DNA from: an uncultured Brevinema sp. | GTDB taxonomy: Bacteria > Spirochaetota > Brevinematia > Brevinematales > Brevinemataceae | Length of the DNA stretch: 32,547 nt | NCBI GenBank assembly: GCA_947036575.1 | Contig: CAMQSH010000003.1 | Coordinates: 1 to 32,547, forward strand | Direction of reading: 5' to 3' | In this document: piece by piece, positions 3,935-31,654 of the stretch | Layout of the letters: each line of letters opens with the position of its first letter | Position numbering within the stretch: the first letter of the stretch is position 1 | Position numbers and translations under genes: made by a program | Notes under the pieces: model-generated | Told to the model about the DNA's origin: nothing | What the model saw: the letters and a program-made list of their open reading frames with translations, nothing else | The model's database searches: none

Positions 3935-4031
3935 TATAATTTCTCTATTTTTTTGTTATATTATATATTATGATCTGGAGATTTGCAATCTACCAATGAG
4001 TATTCTTATTTAGTCATACTTACAAAAATAA

Positions 4032-4066
4032 AAAACACCACCCTAATAATAAGGTGGTAGGTTTTT
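4032..4066. terminator. Rho-independent terminator
   Basis: AAAAACACCACCctaataataaGGTGGTaGGTTTTT. Confidence 0.75.
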
Positions 4067-4113
4067 GTTTTTATACAATAATTATTTTGTTTGTCTTATT
4101 AAGATAATCTAAT

Positions 4114-4931: not shown

Positions 4932-6197
4932 ATGTCTTTTGAACAAAAATTTTTAAGTGCTGCTAATGCGTTTTCAACACAACGGCATATTAATGCTGTT
5001 AGGAATTCGTTTTATAAGTTAATGCCTCTCATTCTTATTGCATCATTTTATGTACTGATTAACAATGTTTTTTTTCCATTGTTTGCGGACAATGCTTTTA
5101 TCCAATCTTTTAAAGATGTTGGAGATAGAGTATTTCGTGGAACATTAGGAATTATGTCCTTACTCTCTGCCTTTATAACTGCTTTCTATTTAGCAGAATC
5201 TTATAAAGAAGAGGGTATTTTTTATGGAGCAACAGCTCTTGGTTGTTTAGTAGCTTTACTTCCTGGTGCACCTATGGTCACTGTAGAGGGTGTTACTGGA
5301 GGTGTTTGGGGGATTTTAACATTTGCTGATACTTCTGCTTCTGGATTATTTGTAGCTATTCTTACAGCTATTGTGAGCACAGAATTATTGAGATCATTTT
5401 CCAAAGTTAAAGCACTTCTTATTACTCTTCCTGATTCAGTCCCACCAGCTGTAGCAAAATCTTTTTCTGCTCTTGTTCCTATTTTATTAACTTTCACTAT
5501 TTTTTCAGTTTTTGCTTATATTCTAAATTATGCTTGGGGAACAACTCTTTCTAATATCATTACAACAACCATACAAACTCCTCTTGTTAGTATTTTTCAA
5601 ACACCAATTGGATTGATGGCTGTTGTAGTATTAAAAAATCTTCTTTGGGGATTTGGTTTACATGGATCTTTTGTTCTTGGTCCCATTACAGAACCTACTC
5701 TTCTTATTGCAATTCAAGAAAATATCGCTAATATACAAGCAGGACTTGAGCCAACATTTATTGTTACAAAGCCTTTCTTAGATGCTTTTGCTAATTTTGG
5801 AGGTTCTGGTGGTACTTTTGGTTTAATTTTGGCACTGCTTATTTTCTCCAAAAGAGAGGATGAAAAACTTATTGGTAAATTAAGTCTTACTCCTGGGTTA
5901 TTCAATATCAATGAGCCTCTTATGTTTGGACTTCCTATTGTGTTAAATCCTGTTTATATAATTCCTGTTATTATTACGCCTATCGTAACAACTTTGATTG
6001 CTTATATTGCAACAGCTATGGGGCTTATTAATAAAACAATTGTATTAGTTCCTTGGACAACACCACCAGTGTTATCAGCATACCTTGCTACAGGAAATGA
6101 TATTAGAGCAGCGATTTTATCTATGGTATTAATTGTAATTTCTACTCTTATTTTTGCTCCTTTTGTTATGATATCTAATAAAATGCTCAAAAAATAA
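4932..6197 (+). CDS. PTS sugar transporter EIIC, cellobiose/lactose (CelB-like) family
   Basis: ~10 TM EIIC with GLHGSFVLGPITEP and FNINEPLMFGLPIVLNP motifs; RBS AGGAG. Confidence 0.85.
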   Translation: MSFEQKFLSAANAFSTQRHINAVRNSFYKLMPLILIASFYVLINNVFFPLFADNAFIQSFKDVGDRVFRGTLGIMSLLSAFITAFYLAESYKEEGIFYGATALGCLVALLPGAPMVTVEGVTGGVWGILTFADTSASGLFVAILTAIVSTELLRSFSKVKALLITLPDSVPPAVAKSFSALVPILLTFTIFSVFAYILNYAWGTTLSNIITTTIQTPLVSIFQTPIGLMAVVVLKNLLWGFGLHGSFVLGPITEPTLLIAIQENIANIQAGLEPTFIVTKPFLDAFANFGGSGGTFGLILALLIFSKREDEKLIGKLSLTPGLFNINEPLMFGLPIVLNPVYIIPVIITPIVTTLIAYIATAMGLINKTIVLVPWTTPPVLSAYLATGNDIRAAILSMVLIVISTLIFAPFVMISNKMLKK

Positions 6198-6210
6198 ACT
6201 TTAAAATATA

Positions 6211-6245
6211 AAAATACCACCTATTAATAAGGTGGTGTTTTTTTG
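6211..6245. terminator. Bidirectional terminator between convergent genes
   Basis: AAAATACCACCtattaataaGGTGGTGTTTTTTT. Confidence 0.8.
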
Positions 6246-6254
6246 TTTAATTTA

Positions 6255-6577: not shown

Positions 6578-7786
6578 CTACTTAGCACCTACAGCCTTGA
6601 GTAAGTCTATAATTTCCAAATCACCATTCTCTAAAGCCCATGTTAAAGGAGAGCCACCATCATTATCTTTAGTATTAACATCAGCCCCACCATCTATAAG
6701 TAATTTTGTTATATCTTTATAGTTCATCAAAATAGCAAAGGATAAAACAGACTGATTATGATTATCTTTATATTTGACATTGAGATCTGCTCCACTTTTT
6801 ACAAGTGATGCTACTACTCCCGTGTGCTTCCCATAAACAGCCCACATCAAAGGAGTCAAATTATCTCTAGTATCTTTAATATTAACATCCGCCCCATTTT
6901 TTAGAAGTATGTCCACGACACTAGTATGACCATTCATTGACGCATACATTAAAGGTGTTATTCCACTGGTGTCTTTTATATTAACAGGAACACTTTTTTT
7001 GATAAGCATATCTACTATATCAGCATGACCATGCCCTGAAGTCCACATCAAAGCATTTTGATCGTGTTTGTTTTTAGCGTTAATATCTACATCTTCTTGG
7101 ATAAGCATTTTTATTATATCTGCATTACCATTTACAGAAGCATACATCAAAGTAGTTGAGCCATTCTTATCTGCTAGGTGAGCATCAGCTCCATTTTGCA
7201 TTAAGAATTCAACAATATTTTTATTACCACTTATAGACGCTGTCATCAAGGGTGTTACCCTTTTAGTACCTCTTTCGTTGACATCTCTTCCCTCTTTAAT
7301 AAAAGCTTGCACTTTTTGTAGATCTCCTATTCCTGCTGCATCCCAAAAATCAACAGTAGCTCCATTATTAAGAAGGAGTTGGGTAATATCTTTATGTCCA
7401 GCATAATAAGCCTGTCTCAAGAGCGTTTTCCCATCATCTAATTTAATAGAAATATCTGCCCCAGCATCTATGAGTAGTTTTACAATTTCTGTATATCCTT
7501 GTTGAGTTGCTAACATCAAAGCAGTCATTCCATCATTATTAGCTATATCAAGATCAGCGCCTTCTTTGATAAGGAATTTTACAATATCAGGATGTCCAAT
7601 ATAAGAAGCCCACATTAAACTGGTAAAGCCCCTATCATTAGTAGCATTAATATTTACTCCGTCTTTGATCAAAGTTTCAACTTTATTCAAATCTCCGTAA
7701 AAAGTAGCTGAAAACAACTCCTCATTTGAGTTATTACTACAAGATATGAAAGATAATAATAGTATAAATAATAATATTTTTTTCAT
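6578..7786 (-). CDS. Ankyrin-repeat lipoprotein
   Basis: Signal peptide with lipobox LLLSFISC followed by about 11 ankyrin repeats. Confidence 0.9.
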   Translation of the reverse strand: MKKILLFILLLSFISCSNNSNEELFSATFYGDLNKVETLIKDGVNINATNDRGFTSLMWASYIGHPDIVKFLIKEGADLDIANNDGMTALMLATQQGYTEIVKLLIDAGADISIKLDDGKTLLRQAYYAGHKDITQLLLNNGATVDFWDAAGIGDLQKVQAFIKEGRDVNERGTKRVTPLMTASISGNKNIVEFLMQNGADAHLADKNGSTTLMYASVNGNADIIKMLIQEDVDINAKNKHDQNALMWTSGHGHADIVDMLIKKSVPVNIKDTSGITPLMYASMNGHTSVVDILLKNGADVNIKDTRDNLTPLMWAVYGKHTGVVASLVKSGADLNVKYKDNHNQSVLSFAILMNYKDITKLLIDGGADVNTKDNDGGSPLTWALENGDLEIIDLLKAVGAK

Positions 7787-7864
7787 AATTACTCCTTTAG
7801 AACCACAGGAATGTTAATAACATGTGGCTTCTTATACAGAATTTTTATAGAATAATTCTGTATA
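7787..7864 (-). promoter_or_regulatory. Structured 5' leader: IR motif (7831-7864) plus CCACA/TGTGG hairpin and extended RBS
   Basis: Leader halves recur upstream of the genes at 8796 and 30644 (see findings). Confidence 0.55.
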
Positions 7865-7942: not shown

Positions 7943-8796
7943 TTATAACCTATCAAATATATTTTTTAAAGCCTTATGATAAGCTTCAGGATCTTCCAAA
8001 TCTGCTAAATGTCCTGCATTTTCAATCCAAAAAAGATCTTTATCTGGAGCTTGGATCTTTGAGTAATATTTTTCTGTTAAAACACTAGGAACTTGCCAAT
8101 CGTTTCGACCACAGATAAAAAAAACAGGAACATCAAACTCTAAATAGTCACTAGTATCATAGCTTAAAAGAAATTGCATAATATTATTGTTTGTTTTTAG
8201 TCCCGTAAAAAGTATAGGGATGTCTCTCATCGAAAACACAGGGCTTTTAAAAAATAGAGAGAGCAGTTTAAAAAATCCATCTCTATGTCCTGCAAGTTTG
8301 TATTTTAATTGTATCCCTCTCATGCGTACTACTAATCTCATAACATTCTCTTCATTAAAAGAATAGGGATAATCAGACATTTCTTGAAGATTTTTTAAGG
8401 TTTTAAGATCATTTTTTTGCTTTACCAAATCCAAACAATAATCATATCCGACTTTCTCTCCTTGTATAAATCCGACAACTTGTCCCATTCCCACGAACGC
8501 TGCGACTGTATTTGGAAAACGCTTTATGTATTCAATTCCCATATTAGTGCTTCTAAGGAAATATCTTGTGGATTTGATTTATTTTTACTTTGTGTTTTTC
8601 CTGTGCCTCGTTGATCATAATAGACAAAACTATAAGGTAGATTTTGCTTTATTGTTTTATAAACAAAATGAGCTTCTGAACTACCTGGACCACCATGCAA
8701 AAACAAGACGACTTCACTAGAATTTTCTACAGGATATTGCAAAAAATATTGTTTTATTCCATTTATTAAAATGTATTCTTCTGTAAATGCTTTCAT
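7943..8796 (-). pseudogene. Alpha/beta hydrolase (prolyl-aminopeptidase-like) with internal deletion and frameshift
   Basis: ORF 8796-8524 has the oxyanion HGGPGSSE and YDQRGTGKTQS motifs and ends ...ALIWELNT*; ORF 8542-7943 resumes GIEYIKRFPN and keeps the Asp (CGRNDWQVP) and His (AGHLADLEDP) regions; the GxSxG nucleophile segment is absent. Confidence 0.8.
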
Positions 8797-8846
8797 TTTA
8801 AATCTCCATTTAAAAAATAAGAAGTGCGAAGCTACGACACTATTGT

Positions 8847-8878
8847 CTTATACAGAATTTTCATAGAATAATTCTATA
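8847..8878 (-). promoter_or_regulatory. Second copy of the leader IR motif
   Basis: CTTATACAGAATTTTCATAGAATAATTCTATA, 30/32 identical to 7831-7862. Confidence 0.6.
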
Positions 8879-10282: not shown

Positions 10283-10626
10283 AGTTTCCTCCTTTTGGAA
10301 TTTAGTGATGATCCCTTATAGGTAATCTATCCTGTTAAATTAAGTACTGTGTTAATATTATATTATATTTTTAAAAATAAGTCAATACATGCGTAAAAAA
10401 ATATCAAATAGCATAAAGTGGTTGATTTTTAGACAATATTAAGACAAATTCCTATAATTTAGCTCTAGTAGAGTATTGTTATACACATCTAAATAATCCT
10501 ATATAAAGTATTCAGTTGACAATCAATCATATTTAATATACAATAATAAATAATATAAGAATTCACATATTGTATTTTATACACTTTAAAGAGTTGATGA
10601 CTCTAGTGGTTCTAAAGGAGAAATTT

Positions 10627-11367
10627 ATGGCTAATCCTGCTTTTCAAGAGAATATTTTAGAAGAATATTCCTACGCCGATGAACAAGTAATGACAGTAAC
10701 AGGAGCTGTTAATAGATCTTTGTTTTTAACAACAATATTAATGTTGACAGGTACTCTTAATGCGTTTATATTTTTTTATGTAGATCCTAGTATTGCTATG
10801 ACAATAGCTACCGTATCAGGTATTGCAGGATTTATTACGGCTTTAGTTGTTATATTCAAACAAAAAACTGTGGCTATTAAAACACCTATTATTGTTTATG
10901 CTGTTTTTGAAGGACTTGCTTTAGGAGGAATTTCTTCCTATTATGAAGCTGTTTTCTCTGGAATTGTTATTCAAGCAGTATCTATAACTGCTTTAGTATT
11001 ATTTATAATGCTCTTTTTATACAAATATAGAATTATCAAAGTGACAGAAACTTTTAAAAGTGTTATTATTGGTGCTACTATGGCGGTAGCTGTTTTTTAT
11101 CTTATTGCTTTTGTGTTATCTTTGTTTAATATGCCTATTGCATTTTTATATGGCAATTCAAATCTTGCAATCGGTATTAATGCTGCTATTGCAGGACTTG
11201 CAGCTTTTAATTTGTTACTTGATTTTGATTTCATCGAAAGAGGTGCTAATCAAAATTTACCTAAATTTTTTGAATGGTACGCAGGTTTTGGTTTATTAGT
11301 TACTTTAGTATGGTTGTATCTTGAGATTTTAAAATTATTATCAAAATTACGATCTAGAAAAAACTAG
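10627..11367 (+). CDS. Bax inhibitor-1/YccA family membrane protein
   Basis: NPAFQ start and multi-TM BI-1/YccA pattern; start 10627 follows GGTTCTAAAGGAG RBS. Confidence 0.8.
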   Translation: MANPAFQENILEEYSYADEQVMTVTGAVNRSLFLTTILMLTGTLNAFIFFYVDPSIAMTIATVSGIAGFITALVVIFKQKTVAIKTPIIVYAVFEGLALGGISSYYEAVFSGIVIQAVSITALVLFIMLFLYKYRIIKVTETFKSVIIGATMAVAVFYLIAFVLSLFNMPIAFLYGNSNLAIGINAAIAGLAAFNLLLDFDFIERGANQNLPKFFEWYAGFGLLVTLVWLYLEILKLLSKLRSRKN

Positions 11368-11388
11368 TTTTTTAATTTAATCAATATA

Positions 11389-11424
11389 AAAAAACAACCT
11401 TATTATTAATAGGGTTGTTTTTTA
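11389..11424. terminator. Rho-independent terminator
   Basis: AAAACAACCttattattaatagGGTTGTTTTTT. Confidence 0.75.
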
Positions 11425-11453
11425 TGTTTATTTAACAAGAGAAGAAATTATTT

Positions 11454-14948: not shown

Positions 14949-15009
14949 TAATATTAAAGAGATTTTAGAAAAACAAATCATAATAAAAGTACAATATAGT
15001 ATATAAATA

Positions 15010-15043
15010 AAAACACCACCCTAATAATAAGGTGGTGTTTTTT
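15010..15043. terminator. Rho-independent terminator
   Basis: AAAACACCACCctaataataaGGTGGTGTTTTTT. Confidence 0.85.
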
Positions 15044-15108
15044 ATTGATTAAATATCTAGACTAAAATATTTTTGAAATTTTCCTCCTTCTTATTTTTAT
15101 ATGGGCAT

Positions 15109-29950: not shown

Positions 29951-30368
29951 ATATCCCCCCATATTTCATTAAAAAAAGGAAATACAGAGGGATATAAAAT
30001 AGAAATATCTAGACCAAATCTCAAAATAGTAACGTAAAAATAATCATTTAAAATACAAAAGCCCATAGAGCTTGTATAGGTCATATTCCAACGAAACTAA
30101 GTTTTAAATATTTCTATTTTATTACTCGACGACGAAATTATACAAGGCTCTATGAGCTATAATATAAATGTACTCGTCGTCGAGTAAAAAACAAAAATCT
30201 AGTACAAAAGCCATGATATGAGAAACACATGGTCTTTTTATCTTTATCTTATGCAGTCCATGACTATGCCAATAAAAAAAGAATTATCCGTAGATAATCC
30301 AATGCTATTTTAAGCATAAGATAAAAATATATAACAAACTATTTCTAGTTCATTGGAATATGACTATA
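29951..30368. repeat. Cluster of nested/overlapping inverted repeats
   Basis: At least six perfect or near-perfect inverted pairs, including 30122-30135/30174-30187 (14 bp) and 30080-30091/30353-30364 (12 bp). Confidence 0.75.
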
Positions 30369-30396
30369 ATTACTATAAACTATTATTAAATACTTG

Positions 30397-30420: not shown

Positions 30421-30592
30421 TTATAAAATTTTATAATTTGAAAAATTCTTGAAAGCAATAAAACTATATAAATTGAAAGCCCTAAAGGGTGCTTCGCTAG
30501 GGCGAATGCTCTTTGCATATTGTGTTTTATAAGTATTTATTTTATAATATATATGAAAGGAGTCCTGTTGCGTTCACTTTGTTCGCTTACTG

Positions 30593-30643
30593 GATAAGAA
30601 TCCACATGTCTCTATCGTTCCTGTGGTTCTAAAGGGGGTAAAT
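30593..30643 (+). promoter_or_regulatory. Conserved 5' leader element with CCACA/TGTGG hairpin
   Basis: ATAAGAAtCCACATGTctctatcgTTCCTGTGGTTCTAAAGG, shared with the 7786 gene leader. Confidence 0.6.
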
Positions 30644-31654
30644 ATGAGTATTAATTATATAGATATTTTAGTATCGAATATAGAAAAACGAAAAGAACAA
30701 GATAAAAAATTTGATTGGTGGCTATATCCTTTTTTAACGATAGTACTGATGATTGTGTTACCAACAGTTATGTATATACTAGTACTTGATTTAAATCCAG
30801 CTAATTTTAGTTTCTATGGTCTTAATGCAGAGCATCCTTATCTTGTAATAGCTGTCTTATTACTAATAGCGATAGGACTTATTGGATTTGTTTTTATAAG
30901 TTTTCACTTGATGTATAAAAGAGCAAAAAGAGTAAATTTTTTTATTCAAAGAAAAAAAGAATGGTACGAAACAATCACGGAATTCACTACTAATTCCTGC
31001 AAAAACTCAGATTCTTTAGGGAAATTAGAAGATTTTATTAATGAAGAAGTTAATATGTCTCCTAAAAAAATAAACTATACTTATTTAATCATTATAGCAG
31101 CATTTTCTATTCTGTATTATTTTTTAAAGACCCAAGACTCTTTGTATAGAGTACTTCCTTTACTTGCTATTTTGATTTTAGAATATTTGTTTTTATATCA
31201 AAGAGTTCAAGATCCTATCATAAGTCTTTCTGTAAAAAATATGGGGTTTTTGATGTTGATATCAGTACTTGCTGTTATATTCTTGGGAGATGTGCTAGGA
31301 AATACAATAAACAATGTAGCTTGGATAATGATATTAGCTATTTATAGCATGCCTATTAATTATCTGTGGAATAAATTACAAAAAAGAGAAAGTAGATTTT
31401 GTGAATTGATTAATAATATATGGATAGAAGAAGGCTGGATGACAGAGAAGATAGAATTCTTTGTCGATCCTAGAAAACAGAGATCCATGCGTGAGTGGAT
31501 ATTTCTTTCTGTGATTACTTTGGGAATAGTCGGGATAGTGTGGGATTACAAAATACATACAGATCCTGATAATATGTATCCACGCTTTTATAAAGCAGAA
31601 GATGATATGTTAGAGATAATCAAAAAACAAAGTTCTTTACTTCAAGAGCTATAA
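30644..31654 (+). CDS. Multi-TM membrane protein with DUF4234-like C-terminal segment
   Basis: Start MSINYIDILV at 30644 after AAAGGGGG RBS (the GTG at 30623 lies inside the leader); C-terminal MREWIFLSVITLGIVGIVWDYKIHTDPDNMY. Confidence 0.7.
   Translation: MSINYIDILVSNIEKRKEQDKKFDWWLYPFLTIVLMIVLPTVMYILVLDLNPANFSFYGLNAEHPYLVIAVLLLIAIGLIGFVFISFHLMYKRAKRVNFFIQRKKEWYETITEFTTNSCKNSDSLGKLEDFINEEVNMSPKKINYTYLIIIAAFSILYYFLKTQDSLYRVLPLLAILILEYLFLYQRVQDPIISLSVKNMGFLMLISVLAVIFLGDVLGNTINNVAWIMILAIYSMPINYLWNKLQKRESRFCELINNIWIEEGWMTEKIEFFVDPRKQRSMREWIFLSVITLGIVGIVWDYKIHTDPDNMYPRFYKAEDDMLEIIKKQSSLLQEL

What the first reader, a model, noticed from the sequence alone, without database searches (positions are those of the whole stretch)
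7787..7830. Conserved hairpin leader with invariant RBS shared by unrelated genes
Seen: the leader of the ankyrin lipoprotein (minus strand ATAAGAAgCCACATGTtattaacaTTCCTGTGGTTCTAAAGGagtaattATG) and of the membrane protein at 30644 (ATAAGAAtCCACATGTctctatcgTTCCTGTGGTTCTAAAGGggg...ATG) match at ~33 of 42 positions, with differences concentrated in an 8-nt loop between CCACA and TGTGG. The BI-1 gene at 10627 shares GTGGTTCTAAAGGAG behind a different hairpin (GAGTtgatgACTC). Conserved stem with variable loop suggests selected RNA structure. This may be an undescribed cis-acting RNA or translational control element.
Basis: partly seen in the sequence, partly recalled or inferred. Interest (0 to 1): 0.7.

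Follow-up and report, generated by a model that had tools for sequence, protein, structure and literature searches.

The report
Dispersed double-hairpin repeat abutting ribosome sites
The hairpin in front of these unrelated genes is one copy of a small, apparently mobile two-hairpin DNA repeat scattered about 90 times through three related bacterial genomes; roughly four in ten copies stop exactly at a gene's ribosome-binding site, so it probably tunes expression there, but it is not a dedicated regulatory switch for these genes.

Summary
A degenerate fourth copy precedes the hydrolase gene.
Covariance models find 89 copies in the window's genome and two of three congeners. None was found elsewhere in the order or class, and only single borderline hits in 150 genomes of the phylum.
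Anatomy: hairpin 1, then AAG, then hairpin 2 (outer stem AGA...TCT, internal loop UC/CUC, inner stem), then TCTAA. Arm sequences are replaced wholesale, yet complementarity persists (covariation score 0.242 against 0.084 +- 0.014 in shuffles; 0.349 against 0.121 within one 170-nt repeat).
35 copies end directly at a Shine-Dalgarno 8-14 nt before a sense start codon. 54 do not: some precede terminators, some form tandem chains, two lie in reading frames, one breaks a recombinase gene. Filled and empty sites show 51-90-nt insertions. Orthologues differ in presence or in which hairpin they carry.
Best reading: a new lineage-restricted, modular, MITE/BOX-like hairpin repeat whose leader copies form the mRNA 5' end. 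A dedicated cis-regulatory RNA is unproven. No Rfam family, Y1 transposase or integron integrase was found.

The parts
7834..7863 (-). Hairpin 1 of the ank leader copy (ATACAGAATT...AATTCTGTAT)
   Evidence: arms pair better than permuted arms across 29 copies
7797..7834 (-). Hairpin 2 of the ank leader copy, TAAGAAGCCACA...TGTGGTTCTAA
   Evidence: R1 74.2 bits, E 6.5e-16; covariation
7784..7796 (-). Shine-Dalgarno AGGAG, spacer and ATG of the ankyrin-repeat lipoprotein gene (6578-7786)
8810..8850 (-). Degenerate fourth copy of hairpin 2 before the alpha/beta-hydrolase gene (8524-8796); hairpin 1 at about 8851-8878; TTGACA-N17-TATAAT 40 nt upstream
   Evidence: R2 E 8.8e-4
10556..10615 (+). Long-loop copy of hairpin 2 in the BI-1 leader (no hairpin 1), followed by AGGAG and the ATG at 10627
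   Evidence: R1 53.4 bits; absent from the G003 orthologue leader
10516..10544 (+). Promoter-like TTGACA-N17-TACAAT directly upstream of the BI-1 hairpin
   Evidence: Sequence read; promoter enrichment upstream of leader copies
30562..30595 (+). Hairpin 1 of the DUF4234 leader copy (GTCCTGTTGCG...CTTACTGGAT)
30595..30632 (+). Hairpin 2 of the DUF4234 leader copy, TAAGAATCCACA...TGTGGTTCTAA
   Evidence: R1 73.5 bits, E 1.1e-15
30633..30646 (+). Shine-Dalgarno AGGGGG, spacer and ATG of the DUF4234 membrane protein gene (30644-31654)
30272..30382 (-). Empty insertion site: the window's copy of a second repeat, which in other copies carries the double-hairpin element just before its terminator
   Evidence: Filled and empty copies compared

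Best explanation
The leader hairpin is one copy of a lineage-specific, dispersed, modular double-hairpin repeat that does not encode its own mover and behaves like bacterial small interspersed or MITE-like repeats. The unit is hairpin 1 - AAG - hairpin 2 - TCTAA; it chains in tandem and inserts into A/T-rich sites. About 40% of known copies sit exactly between a promoter and a Shine-Dalgarno, where the element makes up nearly the whole 5' UTR: two hairpins at the mRNA 5' end with AGGAG directly after the second stem. Shown: copy number, structure with compensatory change, exact abutment to AGGAG, filled and empty sites, and presence/absence and hairpin exchange between orthologues. Inferred: movement by an outside transposase or by recombination between copies (gene conversion); and that the leader copies persist because a stem ending at the SD is tolerated or mildly useful (mRNA 5'-end protection, SD kept open). 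No dedicated ligand or regulator is implied.
For: 89 copies in three congeneric genomes. 35 abut an SD, 28 of them as TCTAA+AGGAG, and 54 do not. Where a sense start with an SD-like motif lies within 220 nt, 29 copies lie 8-14 nt from it and only 5 elsewhere, two of these being tandem units. Non-leader copies have mixed orientation to their neighbours. Empty sites: C89, C105 and C259 against L039, L312, L332 and the window's 30272-30382; a 51-nt antisense insertion with a stop in a tyrosine-recombinase gene, absent from homologues; BI-1, the SPLMGQ family and the MNKNL family with and without the element. Decoupling: DUF262 coding region 96% identical but hairpin 2 only 50%; DUF4234 leader 97-98% but coding region 76%. 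Structure. Promoters are enriched just upstream of leader copies (p 2.7e-4).
Against: No terminal inverted repeats and no consistent target-site duplication could be defined. No transposase partner was found (Y1: none). Exact abutment to the SD in unrelated genes is more regular than random insertion would give, which points to selection, targeted insertion or joint movement with the SD. The strong compensatory change is more than a purely selfish element needs, unless palindromes are corrected by template switching.
Confidence: 0.75

Rival explanations
1. A dedicated cis-regulatory RNA (protein-binding leader, thermometer or riboswitch-like) controlling translation of a regulon of mostly exported or membrane proteins; non-leader copies are derived debris.
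For: 35 sense copies end exactly at the SD with nearly constant spacing; conserved internal loop (TC opposite CTC/TTC) between two covarying stems; hairpins sit at the predicted 5' end of the mRNA; SD predicted slightly more open than with shuffled leaders (0.40 against 0.31, p 0.023).
Against: Orthologues lacking it; hairpin 2 replaced by unrelated sequence in a 96%-identical gene; genes functionally mixed; 54 copies outside leaders; no Rfam match; many A/U-rich hairpins predicted weak as RNA (mean outer-stem probability 0.31).
Confidence: 0.15
2. Recombination sites of a gene-cassette system (attC-like hairpins flanking accessory genes).
For: Several arrays of same-orientation copies separated by single accessory genes (C130, C317, C143); bulged or mismatched stems.
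Against: Two hairpins per unit and no attC R'/R'' core seen on inspection; no integron integrase over its cut-off, only Xer-like recombinases that also ring in all 14 control genomes; many solitary copies.
Confidence: 0.04
3. REP-like palindromes moved by a Y1 (RAYT/IS200-type) transposase.
For: Short imperfect hairpins next to conserved tetranucleotides (TAAG, CTAA) in intergenic DNA.
Against: No Y1_Tnp match in G000-G004 or G010, while the control search rings in 5 genomes; the genomes are incomplete.
Confidence: 0.04
4. Chance similarity or one recent segmental duplication.
For: Two copies in the window are 85% identical over 46 nt.
Against: About 90 copies, unrelated flanks and genes, arms replaced but still complementary.
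Confidence: 0.02

Closest known systems
BOX elements of Streptococcus pneumoniae (with RUP and SPRITE; PMC3049150)
   Same: Modular small interspersed repeats with strong stem-loops, in intergenic DNA and UTRs, co-transcribed, sometimes in reading frames, thought to affect expression of genes they are transcribed with.
   Different: Unrelated anatomy (hp1-AAG-hp2-TCTAA rather than boxA-B-C); here about 40% of copies end exactly at a Shine-Dalgarno and hairpin arms are exchanged wholesale. No sequence comparison with BOX was run.
Bacterial MITEs (review PMC10969869)
   Same: Short, A/T-rich, secondary-structured, no coding capacity, filled and empty sites.
   Different: No terminal inverted repeats, target-site duplication or parental IS could be shown here.
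Rickettsia palindromic elements (RPE; PMC10969869)
   Same: Palindromic repeats that can lie in frame inside genes; here two lipoprotein N-termini and one recombinase.
   Different: RPEs are about 150 bp and many copies are in frame in genes; here in-gene copies are rare and leaders are the commonest single context.
REP/BIME with RAYT transposases
   Same: Short imperfect hairpins in intergenic DNA.
   Different: No Y1 transposase found.
Guanidine-II (mini-ykkC) riboswitch
   Same: Two small tandem hairpins directly upstream of an SD.
   Different: Defining ACGR loops (known from general knowledge) not seen; no Rfam match.

Membership tests
MITE | Insertion polymorphism (filled and empty sites) | tested here: met
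   orthologue and paralogue presence/absence
MITE | Terminal inverted repeats shared with an autonomous IS | tested here: inconclusive
   Ends (AGGAA / TCTAA) are not convincing inverted repeats; only Y1_Tnp was searched, not other transposase families
MITE | Target-site duplication | tested here: inconclusive
   Filled/empty pairs give no consistent duplication; some leader copies are flanked by AAGGAG on both sides
BOX element | boxA/boxB/boxC module sequences | not tested
   No BOX model was available; the likeness is of kind only
REP/RAYT | Y1 transposase (PF01797) in the genome | tested here: not met
   0 of 6 genomes; controls positive; genomes incomplete
Integron attC | IntI integrase (TIGR02249) over its cut-off | tested here: not met
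   0 of 5 genomes over cut-off
Known Rfam cis-regulatory RNA (riboswitch, thermometer, ribosomal leader) | Covariance-model match at the gathering score | tested here: not met
   None in the window or eight element-rich loci apart from a tRNA; only sub-threshold chance matches
Cis-regulatory RNA in general | Structure conserved by compensatory change | tested here: met
Cis-regulatory RNA in general | Vertically conserved with orthologous genes | tested here: not met
   BI-1 lacks it in G003; DUF262 hairpin 2 replaced
Cis-regulatory RNA in general | Measured effect on expression | not testable with these tools
   Needs reporters or RNA-seq

The most novel reading that the evidence does not exclude
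The leader copies are a mobile, exchangeable 5'-UTR cassette: a double hairpin moving together with or onto the Shine-Dalgarno, installed in front of many unrelated gene families, with its hairpin swapped for sequence-unrelated but structurally equivalent versions. That would let the genome re-wire translation or mRNA stability of accessory genes by moving a structured leader.
Probability: 0.3. Interest if true: 0.68.

Novelty: new variant of a known kind. Interest (0 to 1): 0.48.

Why it matters
It shows that a striking conserved leader shared by unrelated genes can be the footprint of a small mobile hairpin repeat rather than a regulon signal. It also gives a natural series of leaders in which the same architecture is rebuilt from unrelated sequence, including orthologues with and without it. 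That makes a direct test possible of whether a structured element placed exactly at the Shine-Dalgarno changes expression, and of how non-coding palindromes keep their complementarity.

Tried and rejected
Viral contigs: the generic pattern gave 31 stretches, judged chance matches, mostly coding-like and without comparable stems. Leader peptide in hairpin 1 (a TTG...GGATAA frame in DUF4234): rejected, the frame is not kept in other hairpin 1 types (read by eye). CsrA or terminator readings: considered; there is no constant loop GGA and no U-tract after hairpin 2. Y1 transposase and IntI tested negative. SD sequestration: not seen; SD accessibility is weakly above shuffled leaders. R2 missed the single G002 leader copy found by pattern and R1, so scan counts are lower bounds.

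Full report
Observation. The two leaders were read directly. They match at 36 of 42 positions; the match is limited to 46 nt, and the genes are unrelated: an ankyrin-repeat lipoprotein and a DUF4234 membrane protein. The BI-1 leader is not a separate hairpin with a shared RBS: it carries the same outer stem, AAGAAtTCAC...GTGGTTCT, around a longer loop. A degenerate fourth copy lies in front of the alpha/beta-hydrolase gene at 8810-8850(-).

Finding the family. The window is contig C3 of a fragmented 2.3-Mb genome, 69% complete. A covariance model from nine leaders (R1) found strong copies in the same genome and in two congeners, G001 and G003, plus weaker ones with entirely different stems. 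A second model from 22 copies outside the class of the original leaders (R2) found 35, 15 and 27 hits in G000, G001 and G003. It found none in the rest of the order or class apart from two weak hits at E above 0.2, and three single borderline hits in 150 genomes of the phylum. G002, a congener, has one leader copy by pattern and R1 that the filtered R2 scan missed, so counts are lower bounds. With the class of the original leaders added, 89 copies were tabulated.

Anatomy. The unit is hairpin 1 (for example ATCCAG...CTGGAT, ATACAG...CTGTAT, ACTC...GAGT), then AAG, then hairpin 2, then TCTAA. Hairpin 2 has an outer stem beginning AGA and ending TCT, an internal loop with TC on the 5' side and CTC or TTC on the 3' side, and an inner stem. 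Arm sequences are replaced wholesale between copies yet stay complementary. Covariation scores: 0.213 against 0.051 +- 0.015 for 28 leader copies (this alignment was fitted to the model and leans towards it); 0.242 against 0.084 +- 0.014 for 22 copies of other classes; 0.349 against 0.121 +- 0.033 for seven distinct versions inside one 170-nt repeat of G003. An alignment-free test agrees: 5' and 3' variable arms of the same copy pair better than permuted arms (-2.89 against -0.87 +- 0.37 kcal/mol, 0 of 20000; 11 class representatives 17 of 50000). Hairpin 1 is supported more weakly in the same way (6.14 of 7 pairs against 5.61 +- 0.11). Units also occur in tandem.

Where the copies sit. 35 of 89 are followed at once by an SD and a sense start codon; in 28 of them TCTAA is followed by AGGAG. 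Among copies with a sense start preceded by an SD-like motif within 220 nt, 29 lie 8-14 nt from it and only five elsewhere. Promoter-like sites are enriched upstream of leader copies relative to other copies (p 2.7e-4), so in leaders the element makes up most of the 5' UTR. The other 54 copies lie downstream of genes, before terminators, inside a second multicopy repeat, in tandem chains, inside the first codons of a lipoprotein gene in two genomes, and antisense in a recombinase gene. AGGAG is an ordinary Shine-Dalgarno here: 32% of 575 long ORFs have it at a plausible start.

Evidence that it moves or is exchanged. (a) A second repeat occurs with the element (C89, C105, C259) and without it (L039, L312, L332, L311 and the window itself at 30272-30382), at the same place just before its terminator. 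(b) A 51-nt copy interrupts a tyrosine-recombinase gene; intact homologues in G001 and G002 lack it. (c) BI-1 has the hairpin in G000 and G001 but an ordinary leader in G003; SPLMGQ, MNKNL and DUF262-type families have members without it. (d) Leader and gene histories are decoupled: the DUF262 gene is 96% identical between G000 and G001 while hairpin 2 is 50% identical and of another class; the DUF4234 leader is 97-98% identical while the gene is 76%.

Interpretation. These facts fit a dispersed, non-coding, MITE- or BOX-like repeat better than a dedicated regulatory RNA. The exact abutment to the SD, the constant sense orientation there and the compensatory changes still suggest that leader copies are under selection, or that the insertion prefers the A-rich sequence in front of GGAG. 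Which of these holds is not decided. Predicted SD accessibility is only slightly above shuffled leaders, and many A/U-rich stems are predicted weak as RNA, so a strong switch is not indicated. The alternative that palindromes are kept perfect by template switching, without any function, is not excluded.

Comparison. No Rfam family matches. BOX elements and MITEs share modularity, stem-loops and UTR positions (PMC3049150, PMC10969869); Rickettsia palindromic elements share in-frame copies (PMC10969869). Membership in MITE proper is not established, because inverted ends, target duplication and a mover were not found. REP/RAYT and integron attC were tested and not met. A held-library search for double-hairpin elements returned only organelle papers and the combined hairpin/SD/spirochete terms nothing, so I found no earlier description; subscription journals were not searched.

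Limits. Genomes are fragmented; some copies at contig ends or on near-identical contigs may be counted twice or missed. The organism could not be named. Direction of change (gain or loss) at individual sites is inferred.

Noticed in passing
window 30050-30382 (-): A second dispersed repeat; copies such as L311 and L312 show a TTGACA-N17-TATAAT promoter, about 100 nt and an intrinsic terminator (GTTATC..GATAATTCTTTTTT), like a multicopy small-RNA gene. Some copies elsewhere carry the double-hairpin element just before the terminator.
   Followed up: partly
G003, for example L230 344-387, L224 15581-15623(-), L348: About ten copies of a roughly 170-nt multi-hairpin repeat (GGGGGAGCC..GGCTCTCCCCC, then hairpins 1 and 2, then AACCCCCTAAGAACCCCC) whose hairpin 2 covaries strongly.
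   Followed up: partly
G000:C246:2340-2383(-) (L340) and G003:C21:13213-13274 (L224): The double hairpin sits in frame directly after the start codon of a lipoprotein gene (MKYL.QRLDKTIKS...LLTMSCTDK), lengthening its signal region.
   Followed up: partly
window 7943-8796 (-): The alpha/beta-hydrolase is split into two overlapping ORFs (8524-8796 and 7943-8542), probably a frameshift or pseudogene.
   Followed up: no
window 4015-4073, 6193-6249, 11383-11430, 14993-15046: Several terminators share nearly the same stem and loop (CACCACCctaataataAGGTGGTG), alike in sequence between unrelated genes.
   Followed up: no
G001:C152 end (L362) and G000:C124 (L356): The G001 contig ends at the point where the G000 recombinase gene carries the element, which suggests that these repeats break short-read assemblies.
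   Followed up: no
window 6578-7786 (-): The ankyrin lipoprotein matches PADLOC candidate-defence ankyrin models (PDC-M72A 2.4e-69), probably through the ankyrin repeats alone.
   Followed up: no
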